Source: Streptomyces sp. LS1784 | Lineage (GTDB): Bacteria > Actinomycetota > Actinomycetes > Streptomycetales > Streptomycetaceae | Length of the DNA stretch: 55,795 bases | Assembly: GCF_020103755.1 (NCBI RefSeq) | Contig: NZ_JAHSQD010000005.1 | Span: 1-55,795 of the forward strand | Reading direction: 5' to 3' | Part shown: positions 7,068 through 26,230 of the stretch, in pieces | How positions within the stretch are numbered: position 1 is the first letter of the stretch | Layout of the letters: the number at the start of each line of letters is the position of its first letter | The notes under the pieces: generated by a model | What the model was told of the DNA's origin: nothing | The model's input: the letters and a program-made list of their open reading frames with translations, nothing else | Databases searched by the model: none | Program-made: the position numbers and the translations under genes

Positions 7068-7250
7068 ACCCGCCCGACTCACGGACCGTCATCGGGAGGG
7101 CGCCATTAGTCCCTCGGGGCTCCGTTCGGTACGGTCTTCTCGTCCATGGCTGACGCTGCCTGTTGCATCTCGTCGACGCGAGCACCCACCACGCCCCGGC
7201 CATGGGTGCCGCACGCCGAGTTCGGACCGACCCCGAAGGCCCATTTCCAG

Positions 7251-8861
7251 ATGATGATCACTGCCGTCAAGAGCATCGCCGAGCGGCTCGCGTCTTCGCC
7301 CCGGCGGTTGTGGGCGGTCGCGTTCGCGATCCTGTTCGCGCTGAGTGCGTCCTGGTCGCTGGCGACTCCGATCGGCGGCGCGCCGGACGAACCCGCGCAC
7401 CTCATCCGGGCGGCCGCGGTCGCGCGGGGCCAGGTCAACGGCACCGAGGTCATGGTCCCGCACGAGGTCGGCGGGATCAAAGGCCACTGGGCCGAGAGCG
7501 GGGTCGTGCTCCCGCGGATCTACGAGGACCTGGCGGAGACCCATCTCTGCTACGCCTTCAAGCCCTGGCAGTCGGCCGACTGCGCACCCGCGCTCAAGCA
7601 CAGCTCCGGGACGGCCGAGGTGACCACGTCGGCGGGCCGCTACCACCCGGCGTACTACTTCGCCGTCGGCTGGCCCAGCCTGCTGCTCCCGGGCAAGACG
7701 GCCTTCTACCTGATGCGCCTGATGTCGGCCGCGATCTGCTCCGCCCTGGTGGCGAGTGCGGTGGTCTCGGCGGCGGAGTGGCGTCGGCGTTCCTTCACCA
7801 TGCTCGGGGTGGTGGCGGCCACCACCCCGATGTCACTGTTCATGTTCGGTGTGGTCAACCCGAACGGCCCGGAGATCGCCGCGAGCATCCTGGTCTGGAG
7901 CGCTGCCCTGGCGCTGCTGAGGAGCCCGGACCCCGAACTCCTGAACCGCCGCCTCGCCCGGCTCGGCATCGGTGCGGTGGTGCTGATCAGCATCCGGCCG
8001 TTGGGCCTGATCTGGCTGCCCGGGGCGGTCTTCTTCGCCCTGCTGCTCGGAAGCAAGGACGCGCTGCGCGCGGTCCTGCGGCACCGGGCGACCTGGGTCT
8101 GGGGCGGTCTGACCCTGGTCACGACCGTCCTGGCCCTCCTCTGGTCCTCGACCCACCCGGACCACTCGGTCATCAACACCCCGAGGGGTCTCACCCCGCT
8201 GGCCGCGGCTCGTAAGACCTTCGACAACGGTCTGACGTACATCAAGCAGATGATCGGTTACTTCGGCTGGCTGGACGCCGAGCCGCCGGCCGCGACGCTG
8301 CTGCTGTGGTGCGCCGTGGTGGTCGCCCTGGTGCTGCTCGCGCTCTGCTACGCGCGGCTTCGGGACGCACTGGCCGTCCTGGGGGTCCTTGCCGGGATCG
8401 TGGTCATACCGCTGGTGGCCCAGGCCATGCAGGCGCGGGAGCTCGGCATGATCTGGCAGGGCCGCTACCTGCTGCCGTTCGCCGTCGGGCTGCCGATCGT
8501 GTGCGCCGTGATCTGCCACGAGCGGCTGCCGGGCGGTTTCGCCTGGCGCCGGCTGCTGATGCTCTGTTCCGGCGCGCTCGCCGTGGCCGACTTCGCGGGG
8601 TTCGTCTGGGCGCTGCGCCGCATCACGGTCGGCAACGGTGGGTCGTTCTTCATCAGCCCGGCCCACTGGGCGCCGCCGGTGGGCTGGCAGCCCTGCGTGG
8701 CGCTGTACGCGGTGGCCGTGGTGGCGCTGGGGCTGCTCGTCGCCGTGCCGGACAGGCAGGGGGCGGACCGGCAGCAGGACGCGTCGTCCTCGTCCGAGCC
8801 GTCCGGGGGCGATGCCGACGGGGGGGACACCCGGCTCGCCGCCGTCCACGCACAGGCGTAA
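7251..8861 (+). CDS. DUF2142 family polytopic membrane protein (GT-C-like)
   Basis: 536-aa integral membrane protein. After the first membrane helix it shows the DUF2142 hallmark GGAPDEPAHLIRAAAVARG, followed by about ten more hydrophobic segments. An acidic pair in the first outer loop after helix 1 is what GT-C glycosyltransferases use, so an outward-facing sugar transferase is plausible, but this is inferred from architecture. The ATG at 7251 sits just before the first helix; an in-frame ATG at 7146 would add 35 low-complexity residues and has no better ribosome site. It lies alone between the DUF1707 gene and rpsL and could serve the glycan genes beyond tuf. Confidence 0.75.
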   Translation: MMITAVKSIAERLASSPRRLWAVAFAILFALSASWSLATPIGGAPDEPAHLIRAAAVARGQVNGTEVMVPHEVGGIKGHWAESGVVLPRIYEDLAETHLCYAFKPWQSADCAPALKHSSGTAEVTTSAGRYHPAYYFAVGWPSLLLPGKTAFYLMRLMSAAICSALVASAVVSAAEWRRRSFTMLGVVAATTPMSLFMFGVVNPNGPEIAASILVWSAALALLRSPDPELLNRRLARLGIGAVVLISIRPLGLIWLPGAVFFALLLGSKDALRAVLRHRATWVWGGLTLVTTVLALLWSSTHPDHSVINTPRGLTPLAAARKTFDNGLTYIKQMIGYFGWLDAEPPAATLLLWCAVVVALVLLALCYARLRDALAVLGVLAGIVVIPLVAQAMQARELGMIWQGRYLLPFAVGLPIVCAVICHERLPGGFAWRRLLMLCSGALAVADFAGFVWALRRITVGNGGSFFISPAHWAPPVGWQPCVALYAVAVVALGLLVAVPDRQGADRQQDASSSSEPSGGDADGGDTRLAAVHAQA

Positions 8862-12428: not shown

Positions 12429-13622
<1,194 letters not shown>

Positions 13623-13910: not shown

Positions 13911-14927
13911 ATGCTCAACGCAGGAGATCAGGGAGTTGCGTCGGCCGGGGAGCCGGCGCCGCTGTTGTCGGTCGTCATGCCGATCTACAACGAGCAGGAG
14001 GCACTGCCGCTGACCGTGCAGCGCCTGCGCCCGATCCTCGACGGGCTGGGGATCACGTACGAAGTGGTCGGCATCGACGACGGAAGCACGGATGCCACCC
14101 CGGTCCTGATGCAGAAGATCCACCAGGACTGGCCGGAGTTCCGGATCGTCCGCTTCGCCCGCAACTCCGGGCACCAGGCCGCGCTCACCGCCGGCATCCA
14201 CCGCGCCTTCGGCGACTACGTCGTCTCCATCGACGCCGACCTCCAGGACCCGCCGGAGAAGATCCCCGAGATGCTCTCGCTCGCGCGGGAGCGGGGCCTC
14301 GACATCGTCTACGGCGTGCGCGGCGACCGCGGCACCGACACGATCTTCAAGCGCCGCACCGCGGGCGCCTACTACTGGCTGATGCGCAGGCTCGTCGGCA
14401 AGAAGATGCCGAACCAGGCCGGAGACTTCCGTCTGCTCAGCCGTGCCGCGGTGGACGCGCTCAAGGCGCTGCCCGAGCACCAGCCGGTCTACCGGCTGCT
14501 GGTGCCGTGGCTCGGCTTCCCCAGCGGCGAGGTCGTCTACGTGCGCGAGGAGCGGGTCGCCGGTTCGACCCACTACCCGCTGTCCAAGATGCTCCGCCTC
14601 GCCGTCGACAGCGTCACCAACTTCTCCGCGAGCCCGCTGCGGCTCGCCACCTGGCTCGGCCTGCTGAGCTTCGTGCTCTGCTTCGCCCTCGGTGTCTACA
14701 CCGTGATCGAGTACGCGTTCGGCAAGACCGTCCCCGGCTGGTCCTCGCTGTTCATGGGCATGCTGTTCCTCGGCGCCGTCCAGCTGGTCTGCATGGGTCT
14801 GTTGGGCGAGTACGTCGGCCGCATCTACTCGGCGGCGCAGGCCCGGCCGGCCTACTTCGTCGGCTACGACTCGGCGGAGGGGCCCGACCCCGCGACGGCT
14901 CGCCGCAGCGCCTCCTACGCGGGCTGA
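13911..14927 (+). CDS. GtrB-like polyprenyl-phosphate glycosyltransferase (GT2)
   Basis: Likely transfers a sugar from a nucleotide donor to polyprenyl phosphate on the inner membrane face. The 338-aa protein has the GT2 fold: SVVMPIYNEQEALP, nucleotide-binding DDGSTD, the DADLQDPP catalytic motif typical of DPM1/GtrB enzymes, then two C-terminal membrane helices (WLGLLSFVLCFALGVYTVI and LFMGMLFLGAVQLVCMGLLG) and a cytoplasmic tail. The start is uncertain: the ATG at 13911 fits the domain boundary, but its GAAGG sequence is too close, and in-frame codons upstream would add only low-complexity residues. It heads a plus-strand set with a large membrane protein and GtrA, the usual partners of such enzymes. 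Confidence 0.85.
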   Translation: MLNAGDQGVASAGEPAPLLSVVMPIYNEQEALPLTVQRLRPILDGLGITYEVVGIDDGSTDATPVLMQKIHQDWPEFRIVRFARNSGHQAALTAGIHRAFGDYVVSIDADLQDPPEKIPEMLSLARERGLDIVYGVRGDRGTDTIFKRRTAGAYYWLMRRLVGKKMPNQAGDFRLLSRAAVDALKALPEHQPVYRLLVPWLGFPSGEVVYVREERVAGSTHYPLSKMLRLAVDSVTNFSASPLRLATWLGLLSFVLCFALGVYTVIEYAFGKTVPGWSSLFMGMLFLGAVQLVCMGLLGEYVGRIYSAAQARPAYFVGYDSAEGPDPATARRSASYAG

Positions 14928-15025
14928 CCCGGAGTCCTTCCGACGCCGGTCGGCGGACCGCCGCCGCCGGCCTCCGCCAGGCTGCCGTGCTGCGAGCTGT
15001 GAGCTCGGACGAGAGAACGGACACC

Positions 15026-17446
15026 ATGCAAACGAACAGCACCGCCACCGGATCGGCGCCGGCCACCGGAGGACGTCCGGGAGTCCCGGCGCCGTCCGGC
15101 GGGCCGTCCGGCGGCGCGGCGGACGCGGGATCCAGGGCCCACGCCTTCTGGCGGTTCCTGCCCGCGGTCTCGGCGTACCTGCTCCTGGTGGGGTTGCTGC
15201 TGGCCGCGGACACCAGGGTCGGCGACATCGCCCGGTACACCTTCTACGTGGCCTGGGGCGTGGTGCTTCCGGGCACCCTGGTCTTCCGGGCCCTGCGCAG
15301 GCGTCCGCACACCCTGGTGGAGGACCTGGCCTTCGGCGCGGTGACCGGGCTGGTGCTGGAACTGGGGGCCTGGGCGATCCTCGTCCGTTCGGGCCTCCAG
15401 TCGGTAGCCGTCGCCTGGCCGCTCGTGGTGGTGGTCCCGTTCGCGCTCGTCCCCGGCCTGCGCCGGCACTGGCGCTCCGGCGGTTACCGGCGGCCGTCCC
15501 TCGCCTGGTCCTGGTCGCTGGCCGCGGTGGTGGGCCTGACCAGCCTGTACTACTTCCAGGTCTTCCTGTCGAAGTTCCCGGTCCTGGCGGTCGACGAGAA
15601 CTCGCGGCTGTTCGGCGACATGCCGTACATGCTGTCGTTGGCGGCCAACGCCAAGCAGCACGTGCCGCTGACCGTGCCGCAGGTGGCGGGGGAACCGCTC
15701 CACTACCACTGGTTCACGTTCGCCCACATGGCGATGACCGACATGGTCGGTCACATCGACCTGCCGGTGGTCGAGACCAGGCTGCTCGTTCCCGCGTTCG
15801 CCGCGCTCGGTGTGCTGATCATGGCGGTGGTGGCCCACCGGATCACCGGTCGGGCGTGGGCCGGCCCGCTGGCCGCGCTGCTGCTCTTCGCGGTCGGCGA
15901 GTTCACCGCGATCTACCCGAACAACGTGGTGAGCTGGACCTTCGGTGCGCCGGCCGTCCGGCTGATGTCCTGGTCGAGCATGTCGCTGGCCTACAGCCAG
16001 CCGCTGCTGATCGCGTTGGTCGGCGCGGTCGCCGACGGGCTCCGCCGGGTCGGCGGCCCGGGCGACGCGGACGGGAGGTCGCGGGCGCCGGGCTTCGGGC
16101 GGGGCGTCTTCGTCCTGACGGCGATGTTCGCGACCGCCTCCAGCGCCGCCAAGGCGAGCACCCTCCCGGTGGCCCTCGCGGGCCTGGCCGTCGCCGGCCT
16201 GGCGGTCCTGATCAGGACCCGGCGCATCCCCTGGACGATCGTCGGGCTGGGGGCGGTCATCGCGGGCGCCCAGCTCTTCGCGACGGCGGCGATCTTCGAC
16301 TTCGAGAGCTACGGCCTGGAAGTCATTCCCTTCGGCAACGTCGAGAAGTACTGGGCCGAACCTCTGGACGGCAGGCCCGTGCTGCTCCAGAGCGGCGTGG
16401 TCGTGGCAGTCCTGATCGCCTTCTTCCTGAACCACCAGATCAAGTTGTTGGGCGCCGTGCCGCTGCTGTGGCGGCGTCGGCTCCGACTGGAACCGGCGCA
16501 GTGGTTCCTGCTCGGCGCGGTGGTCGCCGGTCCGGCGGCCTACCTGATGGTCAACGGCTACAACGCCAGTTACTTCACCATCTCCGCGATGCCCTTCGGG
16601 GTGGTGCTGTCCGCCTGGGGGTACTGCGAGGCCTTCGAACGCGCCGCGCTGCCCAGGGCCGGCAAGGCCGCCCTGGCCGTCGGCGCGGCGGCCCTGACCG
16701 GGCTGTTCATCTGGCTCTCGTACCGGTACTCGGCGGACCTGGCGACCTTCCTGGCCGAGCACACCGGGGACGGCACGGGTACCGAGCCGTACACGCCACT
16801 GCTGCCGGCGCTGAGCGTGGCGGCCGCGTTCGCGGTGCTGGCGGGCCTCCTGGGGCTGCTCTGGTGGCTGTTCTCCCGGCCGGCGCGCGGCCTGCGGCGC
16901 CGGGGCGGGATCGTCCTGCTCACCGCCGGACTGACGCTCGGCACCCCGAGCCTCGCCCTCGACGCCCTCCAGTCCCAGGAGGTCCCGTGGGAGGGCAGCT
17001 GGGTGATGCCGGCGAGCCAGGTGAACGCCGCACGCTGGATCCGCTCGCACAGCGCTCCCTCGGACATCCTGGCGACGAACAGCCACTGCTGGGAGTTCAA
17101 CAACTACGTGTACGGTGCGGCGTGCGACAACTACCGTTCGCACTGGCTCAGCGGCTATTCGGAGCGCTCGGTCCTCATCGAGGGCTGGGCGTACGCACCG
17201 AGGCTGATGGCCACCGCGAACGGGGCGGCGGCCTCCGTGGCGCCGTTCTGGGACACCGAGCTGTTCAACCTCAACGAGGCCGCGTTCTACGCGCCGACGC
17301 CGGACATCCTGCGTCGGCTGCACCACGACCACAAGGTCCGCTACCTGGTGGTCCAGCGGATGGCGGGCGCCGAGTCGCCACAGCTCAGGAACCTCGCCAA
17401 GCCGGTGTTCGACAACGGCCGGGTGGCCGTCTACGAGCTCTCCTGA
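15026..17446 (+). CDS. Large polytopic membrane protein, probable GT-C glycosyltransferase
   Basis: 806-aa integral membrane protein. The first ~45 residues are a disordered Gly/Ala/Pro tail, followed by about twelve or more hydrophobic segments. The outer loop carries VDENSRLFGDMPYMLSLAAN and GEPLHYHWFTFAHMA, an acidic pair plus the Tyr-His-Trp pattern common in bacterial GT-C-type proteins of unknown specificity. A soluble C-terminal domain (about residues 660-806: ASQVNAARWIRSHSAPSDIL and so on) should face outside. Its place between a GtrB-like enzyme and GtrA suggests it is the outward-facing transferase that uses the flipped lipid-linked sugar; this is inferred from context. The ATG at 15026 is the first good start; the frame is open far upstream by composition only. 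Confidence 0.75.
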   Translation: MQTNSTATGSAPATGGRPGVPAPSGGPSGGAADAGSRAHAFWRFLPAVSAYLLLVGLLLAADTRVGDIARYTFYVAWGVVLPGTLVFRALRRRPHTLVEDLAFGAVTGLVLELGAWAILVRSGLQSVAVAWPLVVVVPFALVPGLRRHWRSGGYRRPSLAWSWSLAAVVGLTSLYYFQVFLSKFPVLAVDENSRLFGDMPYMLSLAANAKQHVPLTVPQVAGEPLHYHWFTFAHMAMTDMVGHIDLPVVETRLLVPAFAALGVLIMAVVAHRITGRAWAGPLAALLLFAVGEFTAIYPNNVVSWTFGAPAVRLMSWSSMSLAYSQPLLIALVGAVADGLRRVGGPGDADGRSRAPGFGRGVFVLTAMFATASSAAKASTLPVALAGLAVAGLAVLIRTRRIPWTIVGLGAVIAGAQLFATAAIFDFESYGLEVIPFGNVEKYWAEPLDGRPVLLQSGVVVAVLIAFFLNHQIKLLGAVPLLWRRRLRLEPAQWFLLGAVVAGPAAYLMVNGYNASYFTISAMPFGVVLSAWGYCEAFERAALPRAGKAALAVGAAALTGLFIWLSYRYSADLATFLAEHTGDGTGTEPYTPLLPALSVAAAFAVLAGLLGLLWWLFSRPARGLRRRGGIVLLTAGLTLGTPSLALDALQSQEVPWEGSWVMPASQVNAARWIRSHSAPSDILATNSHCWEFNNYVYGAACDNYRSHWLSGYSERSVLIEGWAYAPRLMATANGAAASVAPFWDTELFNLNEAAFYAPTPDILRRLHHDHKVRYLVVQRMAGAESPQLRNLAKPVFDNGRVAVYELS

Positions 17447-17473
17447 CCCGACGAACGAAGCAGTGGGCAAACC

Positions 17474-17926
17474 ATGGTCTCCACCGACAACGCGCCGGTA
17501 CCGGCACCCGACGGCCGGGTGGCTTCCCCGGCCGGCACCGCCAAGCGGCAGCTCCCGTCGTTCCTGGTCATCGGCGTGCTCAGTACGCTCTTCTACCTCG
17601 GCCTGTACGTGGTGGCCCGCCAGGTCGTCGACCAGCAGGCGGCCAACCTGATCGCCCTGGCGGTGAGCGCGGTCGCCAACACCGCCGCCAACCGGCGCTT
17701 CACCTTCGGCATCACCGGCTCGGAGGGTGCGGTGCGCCACCAGCTGCAGGGCGCCGTCGCCTTCCTGATCGGTCTGGGCCTGAGCAGCGGCGCGCTCGCC
17801 CTGCTCGCCCTGCTCGCGCCGAACGCTTCGCGGGTGGTCGAGGTCGCCGGCCTGGTCGTGGCCAACGGCCTCGCGACGGTGGCCCGGTTCGTCCTCCTCA
17901 AGGTGTGGGTCTTCAGGACCCACTGA
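17474..17926 (+). CDS. GtrA family membrane protein (putative polyprenyl-P-sugar flippase)
   Basis: 150-aa protein with four membrane helices (for example LPSFLVIGVLSTLFYLGLYV, LIALAVSAVANTAANRRFTF, LIGLGLSSGALALLALLAP) and the conserved NTAANRRFTFG loop of the GtrA family. In the Gtr systems of enteric phages, GtrA is thought to move undecaprenyl-phosphate-glucose across the membrane. Here it lies 27 bp after the large membrane protein and 2.5 kb after a GtrB-like enzyme, so all three parts of a Gtr system are together. The ATG at 17474 has only a weak ribosome site and may rely on coupling. It ends 42 bp from the convergent acyltransferase gene. Confidence 0.88.
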   Translation: MVSTDNAPVPAPDGRVASPAGTAKRQLPSFLVIGVLSTLFYLGLYVVARQVVDQQAANLIALAVSAVANTAANRRFTFGITGSEGAVRHQLQGAVAFLIGLGLSSGALALLALLAPNASRVVEVAGLVVANGLATVARFVLLKVWVFRTH

Positions 17927-17968
17927 GGACGAACCGGGCCACCGTGTGCCGGGCCGGGCGCCGCGTGA

Positions 17969-19252
17969 TCAGGGTGCGGGGACCGCGGTCCTCGCGGGTT
18001 CCCCGACCGGCTCGGCCGCCCCGGGGACCGCGACCCGGCGGGCCCGGCGCTCGGCCAGCGCGCGTACCGGTCGAGGCGTCCAGTCCTTCGCCTTCAGCGC
18101 GGGCTTCTCGACCAGGTACCAGGAGAGCGCGGCGAGGACGACCGTTCCGGCGAGCGACAGCGGGAGGTAGACCCGCATGCCGTGTGCGTTGTAACCGAGT
18201 GCGGCGACGACCTGTTCGACGGTGAAGCCGTAGATGTAGATGCCGTACGAGAGGTCCCGCTTGACGCCGATCCGCTGGAACGGCACGGGCAGCCGGACCG
18301 CCAGCCAGAAGAGCAGGTAGGCGAAGGCCGGGTAGCCGAACGCGAAGAGCCCGCCGTAGTGCAGGCTGGCGACGAGCACGGCGGCCGACAGCAGCGCGAG
18401 CCCGGCGTTCATCGGGATCCGGTCCTTGTACAGCTGCACCGTGGCGCCGACCAGGAAGACGAACCCCAGGTAGACCAGGTACTGCACGTAGATCGGGCCG
18501 AAGACCGGCACGTGGAGGAAGTGGCCCATGCTGTTGGGGATGTTGACGGAGCCGGGGGTCGTCCGCCAGTCCTCGACGATCAGGATCCAGAGGACCAGGG
18601 TCAGCAGCGGCACCGCCTTCCTCGCGCGCAGCAGCACGCCGCCGGCGGCCAGCAGGCCCATCACGATGTAGCAGAGCATCTCGTAGTCGAGCGACCAGAG
18701 GGAGCCGTTGATCCCGGGGTCGTGGTTGGTGCCGGCCGCGACGCCGTCGGCGACCACGTTCGAGATGTCCCACCCGTTGGCGAACGAGGCGTTCCAGGCA
18801 CCCGCCAGGTAGTGCAGCGGCCCGGCCGGGTGCGACCAGTAACCGGTGAGCGAGTGGTGGGTCCGGTAGTACAGCGCGGGCGCCACCACCAGGACGCTGA
18901 CCAGGAGCGAGACCCAGAGCCCGGGCAGGATGCGCAGGGCGCGGTGCCAGGAGTACCGACCGATCGTGCTGCGCATCGCACTGCCGGTGATCATGAACCC
19001 GGAGAGCGCGAAGAAGCCGACCACCGCGAGCCGGCCGAGGTCGATCTGGCCGCCGCTGAACTGGGAGAGCGGAGCGGGCCGGCCCCACCCGAGCGGATAG
19101 GCGTGGGAGTAGACGACGGCTACCGCGAGGGCCGTCCGGATCGCGCCGAAGCTGTTCTGGCGGCCGGACAGACTGCCTCCCCTCAGCCACGCGGGGCGCC
19201 GGGTGTCGGCGCCTTCGCGTATGCCGCGTGAGGGTCCCGCTTGGTGGGTCAT
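17969..19252 (-). CDS. Acyltransferase 3 family protein (OafA/YrhL-like)
   Basis: Membrane enzyme that typically acetylates sugars of surface polysaccharides on the outer side of the membrane. The 427-aa protein has about ten membrane helices and the family's early motif IRTALAVAVVYSHAYPLGWG with its conserved His, then VGFFALSGFMITGSAMRS and WHRALRILPGLWVSLLVSVL, matching the F-x-L-S-G and R-x-x-R regions of OafA. It lacks the C-terminal SGNH domain that some members carry. It is on the minus strand, convergent with GtrA. Its natural substrate is likely the glycan made by this island, which is inferred from position. Confidence 0.88.
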   Translation of the reverse strand: MTHQAGPSRGIREGADTRRPAWLRGGSLSGRQNSFGAIRTALAVAVVYSHAYPLGWGRPAPLSQFSGGQIDLGRLAVVGFFALSGFMITGSAMRSTIGRYSWHRALRILPGLWVSLLVSVLVVAPALYYRTHHSLTGYWSHPAGPLHYLAGAWNASFANGWDISNVVADGVAAGTNHDPGINGSLWSLDYEMLCYIVMGLLAAGGVLLRARKAVPLLTLVLWILIVEDWRTTPGSVNIPNSMGHFLHVPVFGPIYVQYLVYLGFVFLVGATVQLYKDRIPMNAGLALLSAAVLVASLHYGGLFAFGYPAFAYLLFWLAVRLPVPFQRIGVKRDLSYGIYIYGFTVEQVVAALGYNAHGMRVYLPLSLAGTVVLAALSWYLVEKPALKAKDWTPRPVRALAERRARRVAVPGAAEPVGEPARTAVPAP

Positions 19253-19370: not shown

Positions 19371-19970
19371 CTACTGCTGCTTGAGCGAGTCCGCGTAGGC
19401 CTTGCAGGCCTGGTAGTCCGGCAGCAGGCCGGTGGCGAGGGCCTCCGAGAGGGAGGGCGCCACCGCGTCGCGGGCCGAGAGCTGCGGGGCGTCGGTCGGC
19501 CATTCGATGCCGAGCTCCGGGTCCAGCGGGTGCACGCCGTGCTCGCCGGTCGGGTTGTACGTCGCCGAGCAGAGGTAGGTCAGCGTGGCGTCGTCGGTGA
19601 GGGCGCAGAAGCCGTGGCCGAGACCCTCGGGGATGTAGACGGCCTTGCGCTCGGTGTCGTCCAGTCGGACGAACTCCCACGTGCCGAAGCCGGGCGAGCC
19701 GACGCGCAGGTCCACGATCACGTCCAGCACCGCGCCGCGGGTGCAGGCCACGTACTTGGCCTGGCCGGGCGGGACGTCGGCGAAGTGGATGCCGCGGACG
19801 ACGTCCTTGGCGGAGAGCGACAGGTTGGCCTGGGCCAGGTTCAGCGGGTGGCCGACGACCTCGGCGAGGCGGTCGAAGCGGTACCACTCGGTGAAGTGGC
19901 CGCGGGCGTCGCCGTGCACCTGCGGGGTGATCTCGAAGGCGCCCTCGATGGAGAGCTCACGGAACTTCAC
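19371..19970 (-). CDS. rmlC: dTDP-4-dehydrorhamnose 3,5-epimerase
   Basis: Third step of dTDP-L-rhamnose synthesis: epimerises dTDP-4-keto-6-deoxy-glucose at C3 and C5. The 199-aa cupin protein has the RmlC pattern: [18 protein letters not shown] with catalytic His62, the Tyr132 acid in [12 protein letters not shown], and IPEGLGHGF. It begins with GTG at 19970, overlapping the rmlA stop by GTGA, so the two minus-strand genes are coupled. The C-terminal tail ([15 protein letters not shown]) extends a little beyond the core fold. Together with rmlA here and rmlB-rmlD on the other strand, the whole pathway is present. Confidence 0.95.
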
Positions 19971-20842
19971 TTGGCGGCCGCCTCGTCGAGCAGGTCCAGC
20001 AGGTACTGGCCGTAGCCGCTCTTCAGCAGCGGCTCGGCGAGCTCGCGCAGCTGGGCGTCGTCGATCAGCCCGGCCCGCCAGACGGCCTCCTCGATGCAGC
20101 CGATCTTGAAGCCCTGGCGCTCCTCGATGACCCGGACGAACTCCGAGGCCTGGACCATCGACACGAAGGTGCCGGTGTCCAGCCAGGCGGTGCCGCGGTC
20201 GAGGGTCGTCACGTGCAGGTCGCCGGTGCGCAGGTAGGCGTCGTTGACGGCGGTGATCTCCAGCTCGCCGCGGGCGCTCGGCTCCAGGGTGCGGGCGATC
20301 TCCACGACCCGGTTGTCGTAGAAGTACAGCCCGGGGACGGCGTAACGGGACTTGGGCTCGGCCGGCTTCTCCTCGATGGAGATGACCTGGCCGGTCTCGT
20401 CGAACTCGACCACGCCGTACGCGGTCGGGTCGGCCACCGGGTAGGCGAAGACCCGGCCGCCCTTGATGTCGGAGTGCTCGGTGAGCGAGGTGCCCAGGCC
20501 GCTGCCGTGGAAGATGTTGTCGCCGAGGATCAGGGCCACCGACTCGTCGCCGATGAAGTCCGCGCCGAGCACGAAGGCCTGGGCGATGCCCTCGGGCTTC
20601 TCCTGGACGGCGTACTGGAGCTTCAGGCCGAACTGCGAACCGTCGCCCAGCAGGCGCTCGAACTGGTCCCGGTCGTTCGGGGTGGTGATGATCAGGATTT
20701 CGCTCATCCCGGCCATCACGAGGGTCGAGAGGGGGTAGTAGATCATCGGCTTGTCGAAGACCGGCAGGAGCTGCTTCGACACCGCACGGGTCAGGGGCCA
20801 CAGCCGCGAGCCGGTGCCGCCGGCCAGGAGGATTCCACGCAT
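19967..20842 (-). CDS. rmlA: Glucose-1-phosphate thymidylyltransferase
   Basis: First step of the pathway: joins dTTP and glucose-1-phosphate to give dTDP-glucose. The 291-aa protein has the nucleotidyl-transferase signature [20 protein letters not shown] (residues 5-24), [11 protein letters not shown] and the metal-site [13 protein letters not shown]. Length and motifs match RmlA. The ATG at 20842 has no ribosome site; a TAGGGT box ends six bases upstream, so the mRNA probably starts at or beside the ATG and is leaderless. It is divergent from rmlB across 81 bp, with a 10-bp palindrome touching its start. Confidence 0.97.
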
Positions 20843-20923: not shown

Positions 20924-21901
20924 ATGCGCATCCTCGTGACCGGCGGCGCCGGATTCATCGGTTCGGAGTTCGTCCGTCAGCTCCTCGGAGCTGACGAGAA
21001 TGCCCGGATCACGGTCTTTGACAAGCTCACCTACTCGGGCGTCCTGGAGAACCTGGCCCCGGTGGCCGGCCACCAGGGCTACACCTTCGTCCAGGGCGAC
21101 ATCTGCGACGTGGACGCCGTCGACCAGGTCATGCCGGGCCATGACGTGGTGGTGCACTTCGCCGCCGAGTCCCACGTGGACCGCTCGATCGCCGGCGCGG
21201 GCCCGTTCGTGCTGACCAACGTCGTCGGCACCCAGGTCCTGCTCGACGCCGCCCGGAAGCACGGCGTCGGCCGCTTCGTGCACATCTCCACCGACGAGGT
21301 CTACGGCTCGATCAGCGAGGGCTCCTGGACCGAGACCTGGCCGCTGGTGCCGAACTCCCCGTACTCGGCCTCCAAGGCGTCCTCCGACCTGCTGGCGCTG
21401 GCCTACCACCGCACCCACGGCATGGACGTCGTGGTGACCCGCTGCTCCAACAACTACGGGCACTACCAGTTCCCGGAGAAGGTCATCCCGCTGTTCACCA
21501 CCAACCTGATCGACGGCAAGAAGGTGCCGCTGTACGGCGACGGTGGCAACGTCCGCGACTGGCTGCACGTCTCGGACCACTGCCGGGGCATCGAACTGGT
21601 CATGCGCGGCGGCCGCGCGGGTGAGGTCTACAACATCGGCGGCGGCACCGAGGCCACCAACAAGGAGCTGACCGGGCTGCTGCTGGAGGCCGCGGGCGCC
21701 GGCTGGGACATGGTCGAGCACGTCGAGGACCGCAAGGGCCACGACCTCCGCTACTCGATCGACATCAGCAAGATCCGCGAGGAGCTCGGCTACGAGCCGC
21801 AGGTCCGCTTCGAGGACGGCCTCGCCGCGACCATCGCCTGGTACCGCGAGAACCGTGCCTGGTGGGAGCCGCTGAAGCAGAAGGCGGCCCTGGCCAAGTG
21901 A
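20924..21901 (+). CDS. rmlB: dTDP-glucose 4,6-dehydratase
   Basis: Second step of dTDP-rhamnose synthesis, NAD-dependent conversion of dTDP-glucose to the 4-keto-6-deoxy sugar. The 325-aa SDR protein has the NAD-binding GGAGFIG (residues 7-13), the active-site Thr-Asp-Glu (123-125) in STDEVYG, and YSASK with Tyr147 and Lys151. RCSNNYGHYQFPEKVIP is also typical of RmlB. It opens a tight operon: its TGA overlaps the rmlD GTG. A TAGACT box 9 nt upstream and no ribosome site point to a leaderless start. The same 4-keto intermediate could feed other deoxysugars, but the adjacent rmlC and rmlD indicate rhamnose. Confidence 0.97.
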   Translation: MRILVTGGAGFIGSEFVRQLLGADENARITVFDKLTYSGVLENLAPVAGHQGYTFVQGDICDVDAVDQVMPGHDVVVHFAAESHVDRSIAGAGPFVLTNVVGTQVLLDAARKHGVGRFVHISTDEVYGSISEGSWTETWPLVPNSPYSASKASSDLLALAYHRTHGMDVVVTRCSNNYGHYQFPEKVIPLFTTNLIDGKKVPLYGDGGNVRDWLHVSDHCRGIELVMRGGRAGEVYNIGGGTEATNKELTGLLLEAAGAGWDMVEHVEDRKGHDLRYSIDISKIREELGYEPQVRFEDGLAATIAWYRENRAWWEPLKQKAALAK

Positions 21902-22833
21902 CCGCGAACGCCGCCGCGCCCGTGCGCTGGCTGGTCACCGGCGCGGCCGGGATGCTCGGGCAGGACCTGCTGTCGGTGCTGGGCGCCGACGCGACCGCCG
22001 AGATCACCGCGCTGCGCCGGGCGGACCTCGACATCACCGACGCGGCGGCCGTCCAGGCCGCCGTCGAGGGCCACGACATCGTGGTCAACTGCGCCGCGTG
22101 GACGAACGTCGACGCCGCGGAGACCGAGGAGGACGCCGCCACCGCCGTCAACGGCACCGGCGTGCGCCACCTGGCCGCGGCCTGCGCCAAGAGCGGTGCG
22201 CGGCTGTTGCAGGTCTCCACCGACTACGTCCTGCCGGGCGACGCCACCGAGCCCTGCCCGGAGGACGCCCCGACCGCGCCGGTGAACGCGTACGGCCGCA
22301 GCAAGCTGGTGGGGGAGCGGGCGGTCGCCGAACTGCTCCCCGAGCACGGCTACGTGGTGCGCACCGCCTGGCTGTACGGCGAGCACGGCCCGAACTTCGT
22401 GGCCACCATGCTCAAGCTCGCCGCCCAACGGGACACCCTCGACGTGGTGGACGACCAGCACGGCCAGCCGACCTGGTCGTACGCGCTGGCCGGCCGCCTG
22501 GTCGAGCTCGGCCGGGCCGCGCTCGCCGGGCAGGCCCCGGCCGGGGTCTACCACGGCACCGCGAGCGGCCGGACCACCTGGTGCGGACTGGCCCGCGAGA
22601 CCTACGCACTGAGCGGGCTGGACCCGGAGCGGATCCGTCCGACCACCTCGGAGGCCTTCGTCCGCCCGGCCGTCCGCCCGGCCTTCAGCGTGCTGGCCCA
22701 CGACCGCTGGGCCGCCGCCGGGCTGGCGCCGCTGCCCGAGTGGCGGGCCATGCTGGCCGAGGCCCTGACCAAGCCCGTCTTCGCCGAACTGGCCGCCACG
22801 GCCCGGAGCACCGAGAGCGACAGACCTCAGTGA
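21898..22833 (+). CDS. rmlD: dTDP-4-dehydrorhamnose reductase
   Basis: Last step: NAD(P)H reduction to dTDP-L-rhamnose. The 311-aa SDR protein begins with GTG at 21898, four bases inside the rmlB end. It has the Rossmann motif LVTGAAGMLGQ, the NCAAWTNVDAAE region, STDYVLPGD and the catalytic YGRSK, all characteristic of RmlD/RfbD. LPGD replaces the more usual F-x-G-x at the STDYVF site, a mild variation. Its stop overlaps the GTG start of the flippase gene, so rmlB, rmlD and the flippase are translated as a chain. Confidence 0.95.
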   Translation: MTANAAAPVRWLVTGAAGMLGQDLLSVLGADATAEITALRRADLDITDAAAVQAAVEGHDIVVNCAAWTNVDAAETEEDAATAVNGTGVRHLAAACAKSGARLLQVSTDYVLPGDATEPCPEDAPTAPVNAYGRSKLVGERAVAELLPEHGYVVRTAWLYGEHGPNFVATMLKLAAQRDTLDVVDDQHGQPTWSYALAGRLVELGRAALAGQAPAGVYHGTASGRTTWCGLARETYALSGLDPERIRPTTSEAFVRPAVRPAFSVLAHDRWAAAGLAPLPEWRAMLAEALTKPVFAELAATARSTESDRPQ

Positions 22834-24167
22834 AGAACCCGCTGACGAAGGTGGCTGCCGCGCTACCGCCAGGAACCCTGGCGGTGGCCGGCGGCACCGT
22901 CGTACTGGGCGCCGCCTCCTACATCCACCTCGGGGTGGCGGGCCACAGCCTGTCCGTCGACGACATGGCGAACGTCTCGCTGCTGTGGACGATCGTGATG
23001 TCCGTCGGCATCGGCGTCTTCTTCCCGATCGAGCAGGAGCTCACCCGGATCGTCGCGGCGCGGGCGGCGCTCGGCCACGGCGCCGCGCCGGTGCTGCGCC
23101 GGGCGACCCTGCTCACCGGTGGGATCCTCGCGGCGACCCTGGCCGTCCTCGGTGCCGCCTCCGGCCCGATCGCCCGGGCGATGTTCCACGGCGACCGCTC
23201 GCTGGTGCTGGCCCTCGGCGGCGCCTTCACCGGCATGGCCGTCTGCTACCTCACCCGCGGCGTGCTGGCCGGCCTCGGACGCTTCGGCGCGTACGGCACC
23301 CAGCTCGGCCTGGACGGCGGCCTGCGGATCGGCCTGGCCTTCGCCTGCGGCGTGGCCGGGGTGCACTCGGCGCTCGCGTTCAGCCTGATCCTGGCCGTCG
23401 CGCCGATCCTCGCCACGATCGCCACGCTGCCCCCGCTGCTGCGCGCGGTCAAACCCGGCGAGCAGGTCGGCTGGTCCGAACTCTGCTCCGGGCTCGGCCT
23501 GTTGATCTGCTCGACGCTGCTCTCGCAGGTCGTGGTGAACGCGGCCGTGGTGAGCACCAAGCTGCTCGCGCCCTCCGACTCCGCGCTGATCGCCGCCCTG
23601 CTCAACGCGCTGGTGCTGGCCCGGGTGCCGCTGTTCGTCTTCGGTTCGCTCCAGGCCTCGCTGCTGAACGGCCTCTCCGCCGCGATCGCGGTCGGGGACC
23701 GGGCCGCCTTCACCGGGATGCTCAAGAAGATCGGCGTCGTGGTGGGCGCGCTCGGCCTGCTCGGCGGTATCCCGGCGGTCGCCCTCGGCCCGTGGCTGAT
23801 CCAGGTGCTGTTCGGCGCCAAGCCGGTGCTCGGCTGCCTCGACTTCTTCTGGTTGTCCGCCGGAACCGTCGCGTACATGTTCGCGATGGTGCTCGGACAG
23901 GCGTTGATGGTATTCAAGCGGCACAACCTTCAGCTGCTCTGCTGGGCGGTCGGCACCGCGGTCCTCGCCGGGGTGACCTTCCTGCCGGGTGAGGTGTCCA
24001 CCCGCGTGATCCTTGCGTATACGGCGGGTTCCGTGGCCACCGTCCTCGGTATGCTGGCGGTTCTGAGGCAGAGTTTCGCCCGTTCGGCGACGAATTCCGC
24101 CGGTCTCGCCCAGCAGTCGGGGGACCCGAACGCCGGGGTGTTGAGCAGTCGGACGGCCGGTGACTGA
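22830..24167 (+). CDS. Polysaccharide flippase-like membrane protein (MOP/Wzx-MurJ type)
   Basis: 445-aa protein with about twelve membrane helices and few charged loops, for example LSVDDMANVSLLWTIVMSVG, FPIEQELTRIVAARA and VYLTRG-like segments in the Wzx pattern. It should move a lipid-linked oligosaccharide across the membrane, though families of this kind are too divergent to name the cargo. The GTG start at 22830 overlaps the rmlD stop by four bases, so it is part of the rhamnose operon. The C-terminal ~30 residues are soluble and Ser/Gly-rich. Placement right after rmlD supports export of a rhamnose-containing glycan (inference). Confidence 0.8.
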   Translation: MKNPLTKVAAALPPGTLAVAGGTVVLGAASYIHLGVAGHSLSVDDMANVSLLWTIVMSVGIGVFFPIEQELTRIVAARAALGHGAAPVLRRATLLTGGILAATLAVLGAASGPIARAMFHGDRSLVLALGGAFTGMAVCYLTRGVLAGLGRFGAYGTQLGLDGGLRIGLAFACGVAGVHSALAFSLILAVAPILATIATLPPLLRAVKPGEQVGWSELCSGLGLLICSTLLSQVVVNAAVVSTKLLAPSDSALIAALLNALVLARVPLFVFGSLQASLLNGLSAAIAVGDRAAFTGMLKKIGVVVGALGLLGGIPAVALGPWLIQVLFGAKPVLGCLDFFWLSAGTVAYMFAMVLGQALMVFKRHNLQLLCWAVGTAVLAGVTFLPGEVSTRVILAYTAGSVATVLGMLAVLRQSFARSATNSAGLAQQSGDPNAGVLSSRTAGD

Positions 24168-24235
24168 CCGTGTCCGCCCCTCATCTTCAGATCGCCGCGC
24201 AGCAGCGCGGGCCAGACCCCATTCATGGAGCCTCC

Positions 24236-24925
24236 GTGTCCCAGTACGACGATGTTTGGCTGGTGATCCCGGCCTACAACGAGGGCCAGGTGATCGCCGA
24301 CGTTGTGGAGGGGGCGCGAAAGACGTTCCCGAACATCGTGGTGGTCGATGACGGCAGCGGCGACGACTCGGCCAAGCACATCATGCAGACGGGCGCGCAC
24401 CTGGTGCGCCACCCGGTCAACCTCGGCCAGGGTGCCGCCCTCCAGACCGGCCTCGCCTACGCCCTGGCCCAGCCGGGCGCCAAGTACTTCGCCACCTTCG
24501 ACGCCGACGGCCAGCACCAGACCGCCGACGTCGAGAAGATGGTCGCCCTGCTGCGGGAGGGCGACGTGGACGTCGTCCTCGGCTCGCGCTTCATCGAGCA
24601 GAACGGGCAGGTGCCGTGGATCAAGCGGGTCGTCCTGCGCACCGCGGCGACCGTCAGCCCGACCGCGCGCAAGCTCAAGCTGACCGACGCCCACAACGGC
24701 CTGCGCGTACTGAACCGCGAGGCCGCCGGTCGGCTGCGGATCACCATGAACGGCATGGCACACGCGTCGGAGATCGTCAGCTTCCTCGCCGGCTCGGACC
24801 TGCGGGTCGCCGAGCTCCCGGTGGACATCCTGTACACCGAGTACTCACGCGCCAAGGGTCAGTCCCTGATCAACGGCGTCAACATCATCTTCGACATCTC
24901 GCTGCGGGAGCGTAGCCGCCGATGA
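24236..24925 (+). CDS. Glycosyltransferase family 2 (DPM1/GtrB-like, paired with DUF2304)
   Basis: 229-aa GT2 enzyme with WLVIPAYNEGQVIADVV, VVVDDGSGDDS, the FDADGQHQ metal-binding motif and DAHNGLRVLN. It has no membrane helix of its own. Small soluble GT2 enzymes of this type often transfer a sugar to polyprenyl phosphate and are encoded beside a DUF2304 membrane protein, as here, with an ATGA overlap at 24922. I chose GTG at 24236 because GGAG lies five bases before it; GTG at 24170 would add 22 residues and has no ribosome site. It follows the flippase by 68 bp in the same operon. Confidence 0.85.
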   Translation: MSQYDDVWLVIPAYNEGQVIADVVEGARKTFPNIVVVDDGSGDDSAKHIMQTGAHLVRHPVNLGQGAALQTGLAYALAQPGAKYFATFDADGQHQTADVEKMVALLREGDVDVVLGSRFIEQNGQVPWIKRVVLRTAATVSPTARKLKLTDAHNGLRVLNREAAGRLRITMNGMAHASEIVSFLAGSDLRVAELPVDILYTEYSRAKGQSLINGVNIIFDISLRERSRR

Positions 24926-25320
24926 AATTCTTCTGGATCCAGCTGGTTCTCATTCTCGGCTCGGTCGCTCTCGCCTTCATGTTCATCCGGCGCTGGGACC
25001 GTGCCAACACCCGCGCCTGGAAGCGGATCGCGTTCTCGGTCTTCGTGATCGTGAACATCTACGCGGTGCTGCGTCCCACCGACGTGACCTGGCTGGCCCA
25101 CCAGCTCGGCGTCGGCCGCGGTACCGACCTGGTGCTGTACGTGATGGTGCTGGCGATGGGCTTCCTGACCCTGAACACCTTCCTGCGCTTCCGCTCGCTG
25201 GAGAAGAAGCTCACCGACCTGGCGCGCACCGTGGCGATCAACGAGGGCGCCCGCCTGAACGAGGAGCGCTTCGACCTGGACCTGCCGGTCTCGGCGCCGG
25301 TCGACCGCAGCAAGGCCTGA
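24922..25320 (+). CDS. DUF2304 membrane protein
   Basis: 132-aa protein with three hydrophobic segments (WIQLVLILGSVALAFMFIRR, WKRIAFSVFVIVNIYAVLRP, DLVLYVMVLAMGFLTLNTFL) and a cytoplasmic helical tail LEKKLTDLARTVAINEGA, the usual DUF2304 layout. Its function is not established. Consistent pairing with small GT2 enzymes suggests it anchors or regulates a polyprenyl-phosphate glycosyltransferase. Its ATG overlaps the stop of the GT2 gene by four bases, which makes equal, coupled synthesis likely. The next glycosyltransferase starts four bases after its stop. Confidence 0.85.
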   Translation: MKFFWIQLVLILGSVALAFMFIRRWDRANTRAWKRIAFSVFVIVNIYAVLRPTDVTWLAHQLGVGRGTDLVLYVMVLAMGFLTLNTFLRFRSLEKKLTDLARTVAINEGARLNEERFDLDLPVSAPVDRSKA

Positions 25321-25324
25321 TCCC

Positions 25325-26230
25325 ATGGCGACCTTCGAGTTCATGCTGCCGTACTACGGCGACGTGGCGTTGATGCAGGCCGCGGTGCGGAGCATCCTCG
25401 CGCAGACCGACCGGGACTTCCGGCTGACCGTCATCGACGACGGCAAGGAGCCGGACGTCCCGGGCTGGTTCGCCTCGCTCGGCGACGACCGGGTGAGCTA
25501 CCTGCGCAACGAGCAGAACCTCGGCATCACCAAGAACTTCCAGAAGTGCGTGGAGCTGTCCACGGCCGACCACGTGGTCATCATGGGCTGCGACGACCTG
25601 CTGCACCCGCACTACCTGGAGACCGTCCGGGCGATAGTCAAGGACAACCCGGACCTCGGCATGGTGCAGCCGGGCGTCGAGGTCATCGACGGCAACGGCG
25701 AGGTCAGCCGTTCGGGCCTGGCGGACAACGTCAAGGAGAAGATCTACGCGCCGACCGTCAAGGGCCGGCGACTGATGGGCGGCGAGGAGCTGGCCGCCAG
25801 CGTGCTGCGCGGCAACTGGCTCTACTTCCCGTCGATCTGCTGGCGCGGCGAGGCGCTGCGCGCGGTCAACTTCCGTGACGAGTACTCGGTGATCCAGGAC
25901 CTGGCCCTGGTCGTGGACCTGCTGGAGCTCGGCGAGCAGATGCTGGTGGACAACACCACCGTCGTCTTCCAGTACCGTCGGCACGCCGTCAGCGAGTCCT
26001 CGGTGCAGGCCTTCTCCGGCACCCGGTTCACCGAGGCGGAGCGGTACTTCAACGCGGTGGCCGAGCGGATGGACGCCCGCGGCTGGCCGAAGGCCGCCCG
26101 TGCGGCCCGGTTCCGCAGCGCCTCCCGCCTGCACGCGCTGACCATGCTGCCGGGCGCGCTGAAGCGTGGCCACCGGGCCGGCGCCAAGGTCCTGGTCCGC
26201 CACGCGCTGACCGGCGGAGATCGGCACTGA
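25325..26230 (+). CDS. Glycosyltransferase family 2 (glycan-chain type)
   Basis: 301-aa GT-A enzyme: FEFMLPYYGDVALMQAAVRS, VIDDGKEPDV and the acidic metal motif VIMGCDDLLHPHYLE, followed by a helical C-terminal region without membrane helices. It resembles the rhamnosyl-, galactosyl- or galactofuranosyl-transferases of wall polysaccharide loci, which use a nucleotide sugar in the cytoplasm. Because dTDP-rhamnose is made by this same operon, a rhamnosyltransferase is the simplest guess, but the donor cannot be read from the sequence. It is the last gene of the rmlB operon and ends 19 bp before a very strong hairpin. Confidence 0.85.
   Translation: MATFEFMLPYYGDVALMQAAVRSILAQTDRDFRLTVIDDGKEPDVPGWFASLGDDRVSYLRNEQNLGITKNFQKCVELSTADHVVIMGCDDLLHPHYLETVRAIVKDNPDLGMVQPGVEVIDGNGEVSRSGLADNVKEKIYAPTVKGRRLMGGEELAASVLRGNWLYFPSICWRGEALRAVNFRDEYSVIQDLALVVDLLELGEQMLVDNTTVVFQYRRHAVSESSVQAFSGTRFTEAERYFNAVAERMDARGWPKAARAARFRSASRLHALTMLPGALKRGHRAGAKVLVRHALTGGDRH

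What the first reader, a model, noticed from the sequence alone, without database searches (positions are those of the whole stretch)
13911..19252. Complete Gtr-like three-component glycosylation module plus an O-acyltransferase in a streptomycete
A GtrB-like GT2 enzyme with two C-terminal helices, an 806-aa GT-C-like membrane protein and GtrA are consecutive on one strand, followed by a convergent OafA-type acyltransferase. In enteric phages GtrA, GtrB and a third, specific membrane protein add a sugar to O-antigen outside the cell. Actinobacteria have no O-antigen, so the acceptor would be a wall polymer. The third component shows no family I can name and has a large outer C-terminal domain. 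This is the best candidate here for an under-described system.
Basis: partly seen in the sequence, partly recalled or inferred. Interest (0 to 1): 0.6.

Follow-up and report, generated by a model that had tools for sequence, protein, structure and literature searches.

The report
Swappable sugar-decorating gene set in Streptomyces
Next to its ribosome genes this streptomycete carries a small machine that very probably loads a sugar onto a membrane lipid, flips it outside and attaches it to a surface polymer; related strains keep the sugar-loading half but seem to exchange the attaching enzyme, much as gut bacteria change their surface antigens.

Summary
The genes are real and in the stated order: gtrB (13911-14927), an 806-aa membrane protein "P2" (15026-17446), gtrA (17474-17926) and a convergent PF01757 acyltransferase (17969-19252), between tuf and rml genes. 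P2 has no significant Pfam, NCBIfam, PHROG or PDB sequence match, but the first 46 of 50 listed VIA rows for its predicted structure are GT-C transferases or GPI-transamidase relatives (Z 13.6-7.2), then Z falls to 5.1. (1) The fixed unit is GtrB+P2 (20 of 20 Streptomycetaceae loci); gtrA adjoins 11 of 20, while an acyltransferase lies within 5 kb in 18 of 20, against 1 of 20 hand-picked GtrB loci without P2. (2) In 11 of 12 such loci at the tuf site gtrB-gtrA remains without P2; in 9 of the 12 another large membrane protein stands nearby. P2's scatter on a (weak) fusA tree and conflicting GtrB and P2 trees suggest exchange, as in Salmonella gtr clusters; that the substitutes are transferases is not shown. 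Sugar and acceptor are unknown. No phage carriage was found.

The parts
13911..14927 (+). gtrB: polyisoprenyl-phosphate glycosyltransferase (GT2 / GT-A, two C-terminal TM helices), 338 aa
   Evidence: PF00535; Synechocystis GtrB 5EKP E 1.4e-66; D108, D110, D172 conserved against it
15026..17446 (+). P2: 806-aa GT-C-fold membrane glycosyltransferase of a family without a Pfam/NCBIfam model
   Evidence: AF2 model pTM 0.70, pLDDT 64; Foldseek ArnT E 2.9e-5; VIA first 46 of 50 rows GT-C transferases or GPI-transamidase relatives, then Z 5.1
15569..15757 (+). P2 residues 182-244: first outer loop of the 13-helix core, with invariant D198 (candidate active-site Asp), E223, H228
   Evidence: invariant in 20 of 20 sequences; model confidence under 50 for residues 208-248; role inferred
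16979..17443 (+). P2 residues 652-806: outer alpha/beta C-terminal domain
   Evidence: pLDDT 80-89 for 751-806, but under 50 for 688-742; topology
17474..17926 (+). gtrA: GtrA-type lipid-linked-sugar flippase candidate, 150 aa
   Evidence: PF04138 50.9 bits, cut-off 26.1
17969..19252 (-). AT3 (PF01757) membrane O-acyltransferase, 427 aa; only the AT3 domain is recognised
   Evidence: PF01757 58.5 bits; PHROG O-acetyltransferase E 2.8e-34; an AT3 protein within 5 kb of P2 in 18 of 20 loci
19371..19973 (-). rmlC (dTDP-4-dehydrorhamnose 3,5-epimerase), context
   Evidence: PF00908; TIGR01221 153.2 bits, just under its cut-off 155.75
19967..20842 (-). rmlA, context
   Evidence: TIGR01207 above cut-off
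20924..21901 (+). rmlB, context
   Evidence: TIGR01181 above cut-off
21862..22833 (+). rmlD (start approximate), context
   Evidence: TIGR01214 above cut-off
22830..24167 (+). polytopic membrane protein, flippase-like by eye, context for the second lipid-linked-sugar set
   Evidence: no Pfam model over cut-off (22833-24167 scanned); start read; relatives have 10-13 TM by hydropathy; 'flippase-like' is my reading, untested
24170..24925 (+). PpgS-like GT2 (polyprenyl-phosphate sugar synthase), second set
   Evidence: NF058614 348.6 bits, cut-off 370
24922..25320 (+). DUF2304 small membrane protein (GacJ-like), second set
   Evidence: PF10066 101.1 bits
25325..26230 (+). GT2 glycosyltransferase, second set
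   Evidence: PF00535 56.7 bits
26526..28331 (+). 601-aa membrane protein, possible GT-C, second set
   Evidence: PMT 17.4 bits, under cut-off 22.7; weak

Best explanation
[quoted passage not shown] Step 1: GtrB moves a sugar from a nucleotide sugar to polyprenyl phosphate at the inner membrane face. Step 2: GtrA (here the adjacent one; in other strains one encoded elsewhere) carries the lipid-linked sugar to the outer face. [quoted passage not shown] Step 4: the AT3 protein O-acylates the added sugar or its neighbour. GtrB-GtrA is a stable donor supply at the tuf site; P2 with its acyltransferase is the exchangeable part that sets the final decoration. Shown here: gene content, fold match of P2, invariant outer-loop Asp, association of GtrB, P2 and acyltransferase, patchy P2 and conflicting trees. 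Inferred: all four chemical steps, the acceptor (most likely a wall teichoic/teichuronic-type polymer), the sugar (a UDP-hexose such as glucose is likeliest from the GtrB family, dTDP-rhamnose possible), exchange rather than repeated loss, and that the other membrane proteins at P2-lacking loci do the same job.
For: GtrB: closest solved relative is glucose-specific GtrB (PMC4728340). GtrA PF04138. P2: Foldseek top ArnT E 2.9e-5; of the 50 VIA rows listed (one per entry) the first 46 are STT3, ALG9/12, AglB, PglB, ArnT, EmbA/B/C, AftA/B/D, DPY19, PMT, PimE or GPI mannosyltransferase/transamidase chains, Z 13.6 to 7.2, then 5.1. Charges fit 4+13 helices: K/R 25 in 105 inner loop residues against 8 in 136 outer ones (loops under 70 residues, helix list condensed by hand from the model); D198 lies in an outer loop, invariant 20 of 20. 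Co-occurrence in 200 Streptomycetaceae (same handles in both calls): 16 have P2, 63 a GtrB match at E <= 1e-60, all 16 among the 63 (Fisher 2e-9). GtrB beside P2 in 20 of 20 loci; acyltransferase within 5 kb in 18 of 20 against 1 of 20 GtrB loci without P2 (Fisher 5.8e-8; relatedness ignored, so overstated); 12 of the 18 confirmed as PF01757, the other six by 46-85% identity to the window's. Exchange: gtrB-gtrA loci at the tuf site without P2; on the fusA tree P2 needs 6 changes, at least 3 by starred branches, and one clade is rejected; GtrB and P2 trees conflict.
Against: gtrA is not beside P2 in 9 of 20 loci. P2 has no literal DxD in the loop, only an invariant D198. The P2 model is of middling confidence (pLDDT 64), under 50 over residues 208-248 and 688-742, and three of the helices I counted are barely hydrophobic (mean KD 0.41, 0.67, 0.93). 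VIA warns that for mostly helical models Z under about 13 can be a common arrangement; the drop after rank 46 and the near-single-fold list argue against that here. The main alternative membrane protein at P2-lacking loci could not be shown to be GT-C (pLDDT 49.5, best VIA row AftA Z 7.9), and 3 of 12 such loci at the tuf site (L078-L080) show no large membrane protein beside gtrB-gtrA. The fusA tree is weakly resolved (5 of 19 inner branches starred) and cannot tell gain from loss. L019 and L022 have no acyltransferase found within 5 kb. AT3 proteins of Streptomyces also acylate antibiotics (PMC9558356 passages). No biochemistry; donor and acceptor unknown.
Confidence: 0.72

Rival explanations
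1. Protein glycosylation: GtrB and P2 act like the streptococcal Pgf system or Streptomyces Ppm1/Pmt, putting the sugar on secreted proteins rather than on a wall polymer.
For: Best NCBIfam hit of GtrB is PgfS (197.7 bits); top structural relatives of P2 include STT3/PglB/AglB oligosaccharyltransferases and PMT; Streptomyces is known to use a polyprenol-phosphate sugar for protein O-glycosylation (listing and abstract starts of PMC5882110, PMC6593405).
Against: PgfS score is far under its cut-off of 500; ArnT, AftA/B and Emb, which act on lipids and wall glycans, also match P2 well (Z 8.6-11.4, against 13.6 for the best STT3); the usual neighbour is an AT3 acyltransferase, which in many characterised cases modifies surface glycans, though in Streptomyces also antibiotics (PMC9558356 passages); at the tuf site most loci have dTDP-rhamnose genes next door.
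Confidence: 0.15
2. The donor is dTDP-L-rhamnose: GtrB makes polyprenyl-phosphate-rhamnose from the adjacent rmlABCD products and P2 is an outer rhamnosyltransferase.
For: rmlC, rmlA and rmlB hits follow in all 11 P2-bearing loci at the tuf site (for 10, for the window); distant P2 loci L050 and L051 also carry rmlA/rmlB-like genes and L050 a DegT aminotransferase.
Against: No rml match at E <= 1e-8 in the fetched stretch of the 9 P2 loci away from the tuf site; rml genes also follow gtrB without P2 in 10 of 12 fetched tuf-site loci, and are not seen in L082 and L084; characterised GtrB relatives use UDP-sugars (PMC4728340, PMC8035078).
Confidence: 0.2
3. The neighbours are unrelated genes that happen to sit together in a glycan island; P2 works with another lipid-linked donor, for example that of the PpgS-like set at 24170.
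For: Several lipid-linked-sugar genes share the island; gtrA is often not adjacent.
Against: GtrB-P2 pairing persists at other chromosomal sites (9 loci) where no other window gene of the island matched except an oafA-type gene in L017, and every P2-bearing genome of the 200 has GtrB.
Confidence: 0.05
4. P2 is a polymerising or block-transferring GT-C (oligosaccharyltransferase- or arabinosyltransferase-like) rather than a single-sugar side-chain transferase.
For: STT3 rows score highest (Z 13.6) and Emb/Aft rows about as high as ArnT.
Against: Its constant partner is a GtrB, whose characterised product is a single sugar on polyprenyl phosphate (PMC4728340).
Confidence: 0.15

Closest known systems
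Multi-component transmembrane glycosylation systems of Firmicutes (CsbB-GtcA-YfhO, GtlA-GtcA-GtlB, CsdAB-CflA; review PMC8035078)
   Same: Membrane GT-A, GtrA-type flippase, GT-C with very low sequence similarity between systems; one GtrA can serve several pairs (CflA), which would fit P2 loci without their own gtrA
   Different: P2 matches no PMT_2 or other Pfam GT-C model; 4 extra N-terminal helices; usual AT3 partner; streptomycete host; apparent exchange at one chromosomal site
Salmonella/Shigella gtrA-gtrB-gtrC serotype-conversion clusters (PMC3688519)
   Same: GtrA and GtrB well conserved, third component in families with very low similarity, trees of the components not congruent
   Different: No O-antigen in these monoderm bacteria (established knowledge); no phage carriage found here; gene order gtrB-P2-gtrA; the third component usually has an acyltransferase near
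Actinoplanes missouriensis gsf cluster (PMC13390465)
   Same: Actinomycete GtrA-dependent cluster with GT2s and an acyltransferase-3 protein; deletion of the whole cluster makes sporangia smaller
   Different: Authors state their candidate transmembrane transferase is not GT-C; other accessory genes
PpgS-Rv3632-Rv3779 arabinogalactan decoration in mycobacteria and its Corynebacterium counterpart (PMC9671496)
   Same: Lipid-linked sugar made inside and transferred outside in Actinobacteria; the window's second set (24170-25320) resembles PpgS plus a small membrane partner
   Different: Acceptor arabinogalactan is a Corynebacteriales polymer; GtrB belongs to another GT2 subfamily
ArnT, lipid A aminoarabinose transferase (5EZM, 5F15)
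   Same: Best Foldseek match to P2; 5F15 holds undecaprenyl phosphate
   Different: 13% identity; lipid A is absent from monoderm bacteria

Membership tests
Multi-component transmembrane glycosylation system (definition of PMC8035078) | Membrane-linked GT-A enzyme that charges polyprenyl phosphate | tested here: met
   PF00535 plus two C-terminal helices, alignment to GtrB over residues 18-317; activity not tested
Multi-component transmembrane glycosylation system (definition of PMC8035078) | Flippase, usually GtrA type | tested here: met
   PF04138 over cut-off at 17474-17926; elsewhere in the genome in strains without adjacent gtrA; transport not tested
Multi-component transmembrane glycosylation system (definition of PMC8035078) | Polytopic GT-C-fold transferase | tested here: met
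Multi-component transmembrane glycosylation system (definition of PMC8035078) | DxD or modified DxD in an extracellular loop | tested here: inconclusive
   D198 invariant 20 of 20 in an outer loop; residue 191, seven positions earlier, is E or D in 18 of 20; no literal DxD
Multi-component transmembrane glycosylation system (definition of PMC8035078) | Transfer of a sugar to a surface polymer | not testable with these tools
   needs glycan chemistry
gtr serotype-conversion cluster | Conserved GtrA/GtrB with a variable third component | tested here: inconclusive
   GtrB and GtrA conserved and P2 variable, but the substitutes were not shown to be transferases
gtr serotype-conversion cluster | Carried by phage or prophage-derived elements | tested here: not met
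   no P2 relative among viral contigs or 50,697 phage records; the site is next to tuf
gtr serotype-conversion cluster | O-antigen acceptor | not testable with these tools
   monoderm bacteria have no O-antigen (established knowledge)
PgfS equivalog (NF047588) | Score over the curated cut-off of 500 bits | tested here: not met
   197.7 bits
AT3 / Acyl_transf_3 (PF01757) | Score over the gathering cut-off | tested here: met
   58.5 bits against 31
PpgS equivalog (NF058614), second set | Score over the curated cut-off of 370 bits | tested here: not met
   348.6 bits
Known Pfam GT-C families (PMT, PMT_2 and others) for P2 | Match to a curated model | tested here: not met
   of 20 members none matches a Pfam glycosyltransferase model at E <= 1; two unrelated families have one member each at E 0.093 and 0.25

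The most novel reading that the evidence does not exclude
Streptomycetes have a chromosomal 'serotype' locus beside tuf, at the junction of the str and S10 ribosomal operons: a fixed GtrB-GtrA donor supply into which unrelated outer transferases (P2 with its acyltransferase, the 680-790-aa 'GTC2' family, perhaps DUF2142 proteins) are swapped by recombination, changing the wall-polymer decoration seen by phages, umbrella toxins and rivals.
Probability: 0.4. Interest if true: 0.72.

Novelty: new variant of a known kind. Interest (0 to 1): 0.52.

Why it matters
Surface glycans of Streptomyces help decide who can attack whom: variable teichuronic-type polymers are receptors for umbrella toxins, and the authors propose an arms race (PMC13274773, passages). 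A locus whose last-step transferase and acyltransferase are exchanged while the donor supply stays would give a concrete, gene-swappable cause for such diversity, testable in laboratory strains. It also adds a GT-C family that sequence libraries miss.

Tried and rejected
Sequence-only identification of P2 failed (Pfam, NCBIfam, PHROGs, PADLOC, phmmer and profile search of PDB; only chance-level hits). The idea that GTC2 and P2 are related by sequence: hhalign probability 0.1%. Showing GTC2 to be GT-C: model too poor (pLDDT 49.5, pTM 0.37); VIA best AftA Z 7.9, next unrelated proteins, ALG9 Z 6.2 at rank 8; Foldseek nothing under E 0.1: inconclusive. Phage carriage: 35 pattern stretches in viral contigs, none a relative (only two short patterns were used); phages none; plasmids one hit, an 11.85-Mb Nonomuraea record that by its size I take for a chromosome. 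The clustering joined P2 with acyltransferases; I take this for an artefact of over-long ORFs and did not use it. Three genomes without a large membrane protein next to gtrB-gtrA (L078-L080) fit a loss or a distant partner and are not explained.

Searches are taken to have drawn the same 200 genomes because the handles agree; one search scored only 5 candidates a genome, so a diverged P2 could be missed. gtrA absence at P2 loci rests on tblastn at E <= 1e-8, and for the six genomes held as G handles also on the PF04138 places. P2-lacking GtrB loci: 20 fetched of 47 such genomes (63 minus 16), chosen by hand with high scorers favoured, so proportions among them are not population estimates; 12 of the 20 lie at the tuf site. 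Acyltransferases were sought with four query proteins; 10 of 10 scanned later are PF01757. Trees: 43 GtrB rows (18 of 40 inner branches starred) and 22 P2 rows (12 of 19); L049 and L052 were left out of both. fusA tree: 22 tuf-site loci, L083 with a partial fusA; L032 left out because its fusA was not in the stretch. The L018+L030 clade test was chosen after the P2 tree was seen. The very small AU p-values should be read only as 'rejected'. In shuffles P2 is not clustered on that tree (77 of 500 as low).

Wider search: P2 relatives at 33-37% in 3 of 79 genomes of the class sample besides the window's own, and one weak partial match that a search of the fetched stretch did not repeat (L053); one further in Nonomuraea beside a GtrB-like ORF (26%).

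Papers, what I saw: PMC8035078 abstract and sections 8-9; passages only of PMC13390465, PMC11127046, PMC8327497, PMC9671496, PMC3485146, PMC13274773, PMC11481543, PMC9558356, PMC3688519, PMC4728340; PMC5882110, PMC6593405, PMC5982138 in the search listing with the start of the abstract. No paper on a Streptomyces GtrA system was found with the terms (one hit, on Actinoplanes); this covers that open-licence library only. Recalled, from no call: what PF04464 enzymes do, that GT-C enzymes have a catalytic Asp in their first outer loop and often 13 helices, that monoderm bacteria lack O-antigen and lipid A, that serpins are uncommon in bacteria.
Full report
What is there. Between tuf (12429-13622) and rpsJ (28725-29033) lies a glycan island. 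Its first four genes are those of the finding: gtrB, the 806-aa protein P2, gtrA and a convergent acyltransferase, followed by rmlC-rmlA (minus), rmlB-rmlD (plus), a polytopic membrane protein, a PpgS-like GT2, a DUF2304 protein, a further GT2 and a possible second GT-C.

GtrB. P0001 aligns to Synechocystis GtrB (sll0501) over residues 18-317 at E 1.4e-66 with its DXD (D108xD110) and the GDFRL aspartate (D172) kept. That enzyme makes undecaprenyl-phosphate-glucose and is a tetramer with two helices per chain (PMC4728340, passages). It is the only close GtrB in the window's genome; the next hit is 30% identical over part of the length. The genome holds three GtrA genes.

P2. No library of sequence models used here knows it. 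With 20 sequences AlphaFold2 gives pTM 0.70, mean pLDDT 64. Foldseek ranks ArnT first (E 2.9e-5), then DPY19. VIA, which re-aligns Foldseek's own matches, lists STT3, ALG9/12, AglB, PglB, ArnT, Emb, Aft, DPY19, PMT, PimE and GPI mannosyltransferase/transamidase rows from Z 13.6 to 7.2 at ranks 1-46, then unrelated proteins at 5.1 and below. Seventeen helices, condensed by hand from the model, alternate with the charges expected (25 K/R in 105 inner loop residues, 8 in 136 outer, loops under 70 residues), giving 4 extra helices, a 13-helix core and an outer C-terminal domain of 155 residues; three of the helices are only weakly hydrophobic. D198, invariant in 20 of 20, lies in the first outer loop of the core. 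I read D198 as the counterpart of the catalytic Asp of GT-C enzymes; that is inference.

Who goes with whom. Of 200 Streptomycetaceae genomes, 16 have P2 (2 of 17 genera) and 63 a GtrB match at E <= 1e-60, among them all 16 (Fisher 2e-9). In 20 distinct P2 loci gtrB is beside P2 in all (gap under 700 bp in 19; in L031 an acyltransferase lies between); an acyltransferase lies within 5 kb in 18 (not in L019 and L022); gtrA adjoins P2 in 11 of 11 at the tuf site and 0 of 9 elsewhere. Twelve of the 18 were confirmed as PF01757, six rest on 46-85% identity to the window's protein. Among 20 P2-lacking GtrB loci (of 47 such genomes, hand-picked) one, L087, has an acyltransferase within reach (Fisher 5.8e-8). 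At the tuf site alone: 11 of 11 against 1 of 12. These tests ignore relatedness and so overstate. GtrA genes exist in all 15 and all 4 P2-bearing genomes tested, so a shared GtrA, as with CflA of Lactococcus (PMC8035078), is possible where none is adjacent.

Apparent exchange. The 12 P2-lacking loci at the tuf site keep gtrB (83-90%) and, in 11, gtrA; nearby stand a 680-790-aa family without Pfam match ('GTC2', 7 loci), a DUF2142 protein (2) or no large membrane protein (3). GTC2 also occurs near P2 in L029 and L032. P2 and GTC2 show no sequence relation. GtrB rows of P2 loci fall among those of GTC2 and DUF2142 loci (L018 within a GTC2 group, 98/97; L025 and L030 within the DUF2142/none group, 98/88), while in the P2 tree L018 pairs with L030 (91/94) and L025 with L024/L026 (100/100). 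On a fusA tree, itself weak (5 of 19 inner branches starred), P2 needs six changes, at least three by starred branches, and one clade is rejected. Loss cannot be told from gain by these counts, but the conflict of trees favours exchange. This resembles Salmonella, where GtrA and GtrB families are 84% and 90% alike, GtrC families very unlike (two of them under 18% identical), and the trees incongruent (PMC3688519, passages). No phage or mobile-plasmid carriage was found.

Beyond Streptomycetaceae. P2 relatives at 33-37% occur in other Actinomycetia, with a 33%-identical GtrB and rml-type genes in the same stretch (L050, L051), GtrA in L050, and in L049 a second P2-like gene adjoining GtrA with a GT2 gene on its other side; and in Nonomuraea beside a GtrB-like ORF.

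Function. The parts fit the multi-component transmembrane glycosylation scheme of PMC8035078. Acceptor: the genome has three PF04464 genes (teichoic-acid-polymerase type, recalled), and Streptomyces walls carry teichulosonic (PMC11481543) and teichuronic-type and teichoic polymers (PMC13274773, passages); a wall polymer is likeliest, protein second. Acyltransferase: AT3 proteins acylate surface glycans, including serotype-determining O-antigen acetylation, and in Streptomyces also antibiotics (PMC9558356, passages). The donor sugar is open: rml genes lie next door at the tuf site but were not found at the nine other P2 loci.

Second set. The PpgS-like GT2 (348.6 bits, cut-off 370) followed by DUF2304 resembles GacI-GacJ (DUF2304 is typical of GacJ-like proteins, PMC8327497 passage) and PpgS-Rv3632 (PMC9671496 passage). 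The island thus seems to hold both architectures drawn in the review: membrane GT-A with GtrA, and soluble GT-A with a small membrane partner. The flippase and GT-C of the second set are guesses from weak evidence.

Verdict. New: a sequence-unassigned GT-C family, its tie to an acyltransferase, and its scatter over an otherwise conserved gtrB-gtrA site. Whether the substitutes are transferases with another specificity is the main open point.

Noticed in passing
window 22830-28331: Second lipid-linked-sugar gene set: flippase-like protein, PpgS-like GT2, DUF2304 (GacJ-like), GT2, possible GT-C; next to the GtrB-P2-GtrA set.
   Followed up: partly
window 7146-8861: DUF2142 membrane protein just upstream of rpsL; a DUF2142 protein stands directly after gtrA on the other strand in L077 and L081.
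   Followed up: partly
window 21-1220: A serpin (PF00079, 295.8 bits), uncommon in bacteria (recalled).
   Followed up: no
window 1272-2384 (-): ADP-ribosylglycohydrolase (PF03747).
   Followed up: no
L029 5721-7763 (-), L032 1785-4157 (+): Two genomes carry both P2 and the alternative GTC2 family near the same gtrB.
   Followed up: partly
L075 6949-8190, L074 6847-8238, L076 6982-8337: Relatives of the window's GtrA (54-61%) lie at the end of longer open frames that begin with a GT2-like sequence, as if GT2 and GtrA were fused; in L071 a PMT_2/YkcB-type protein follows.
   Followed up: no
L089-L095: GtrB relatives at 67-73% away from the P2-type site stand divergent from a 415-439-aa, 7-8-helix membrane protein; the one scanned (L089) has no Pfam match. 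In L094 rpsL-fusA-tuf lie downstream of gtrB instead of upstream.
   Followed up: no
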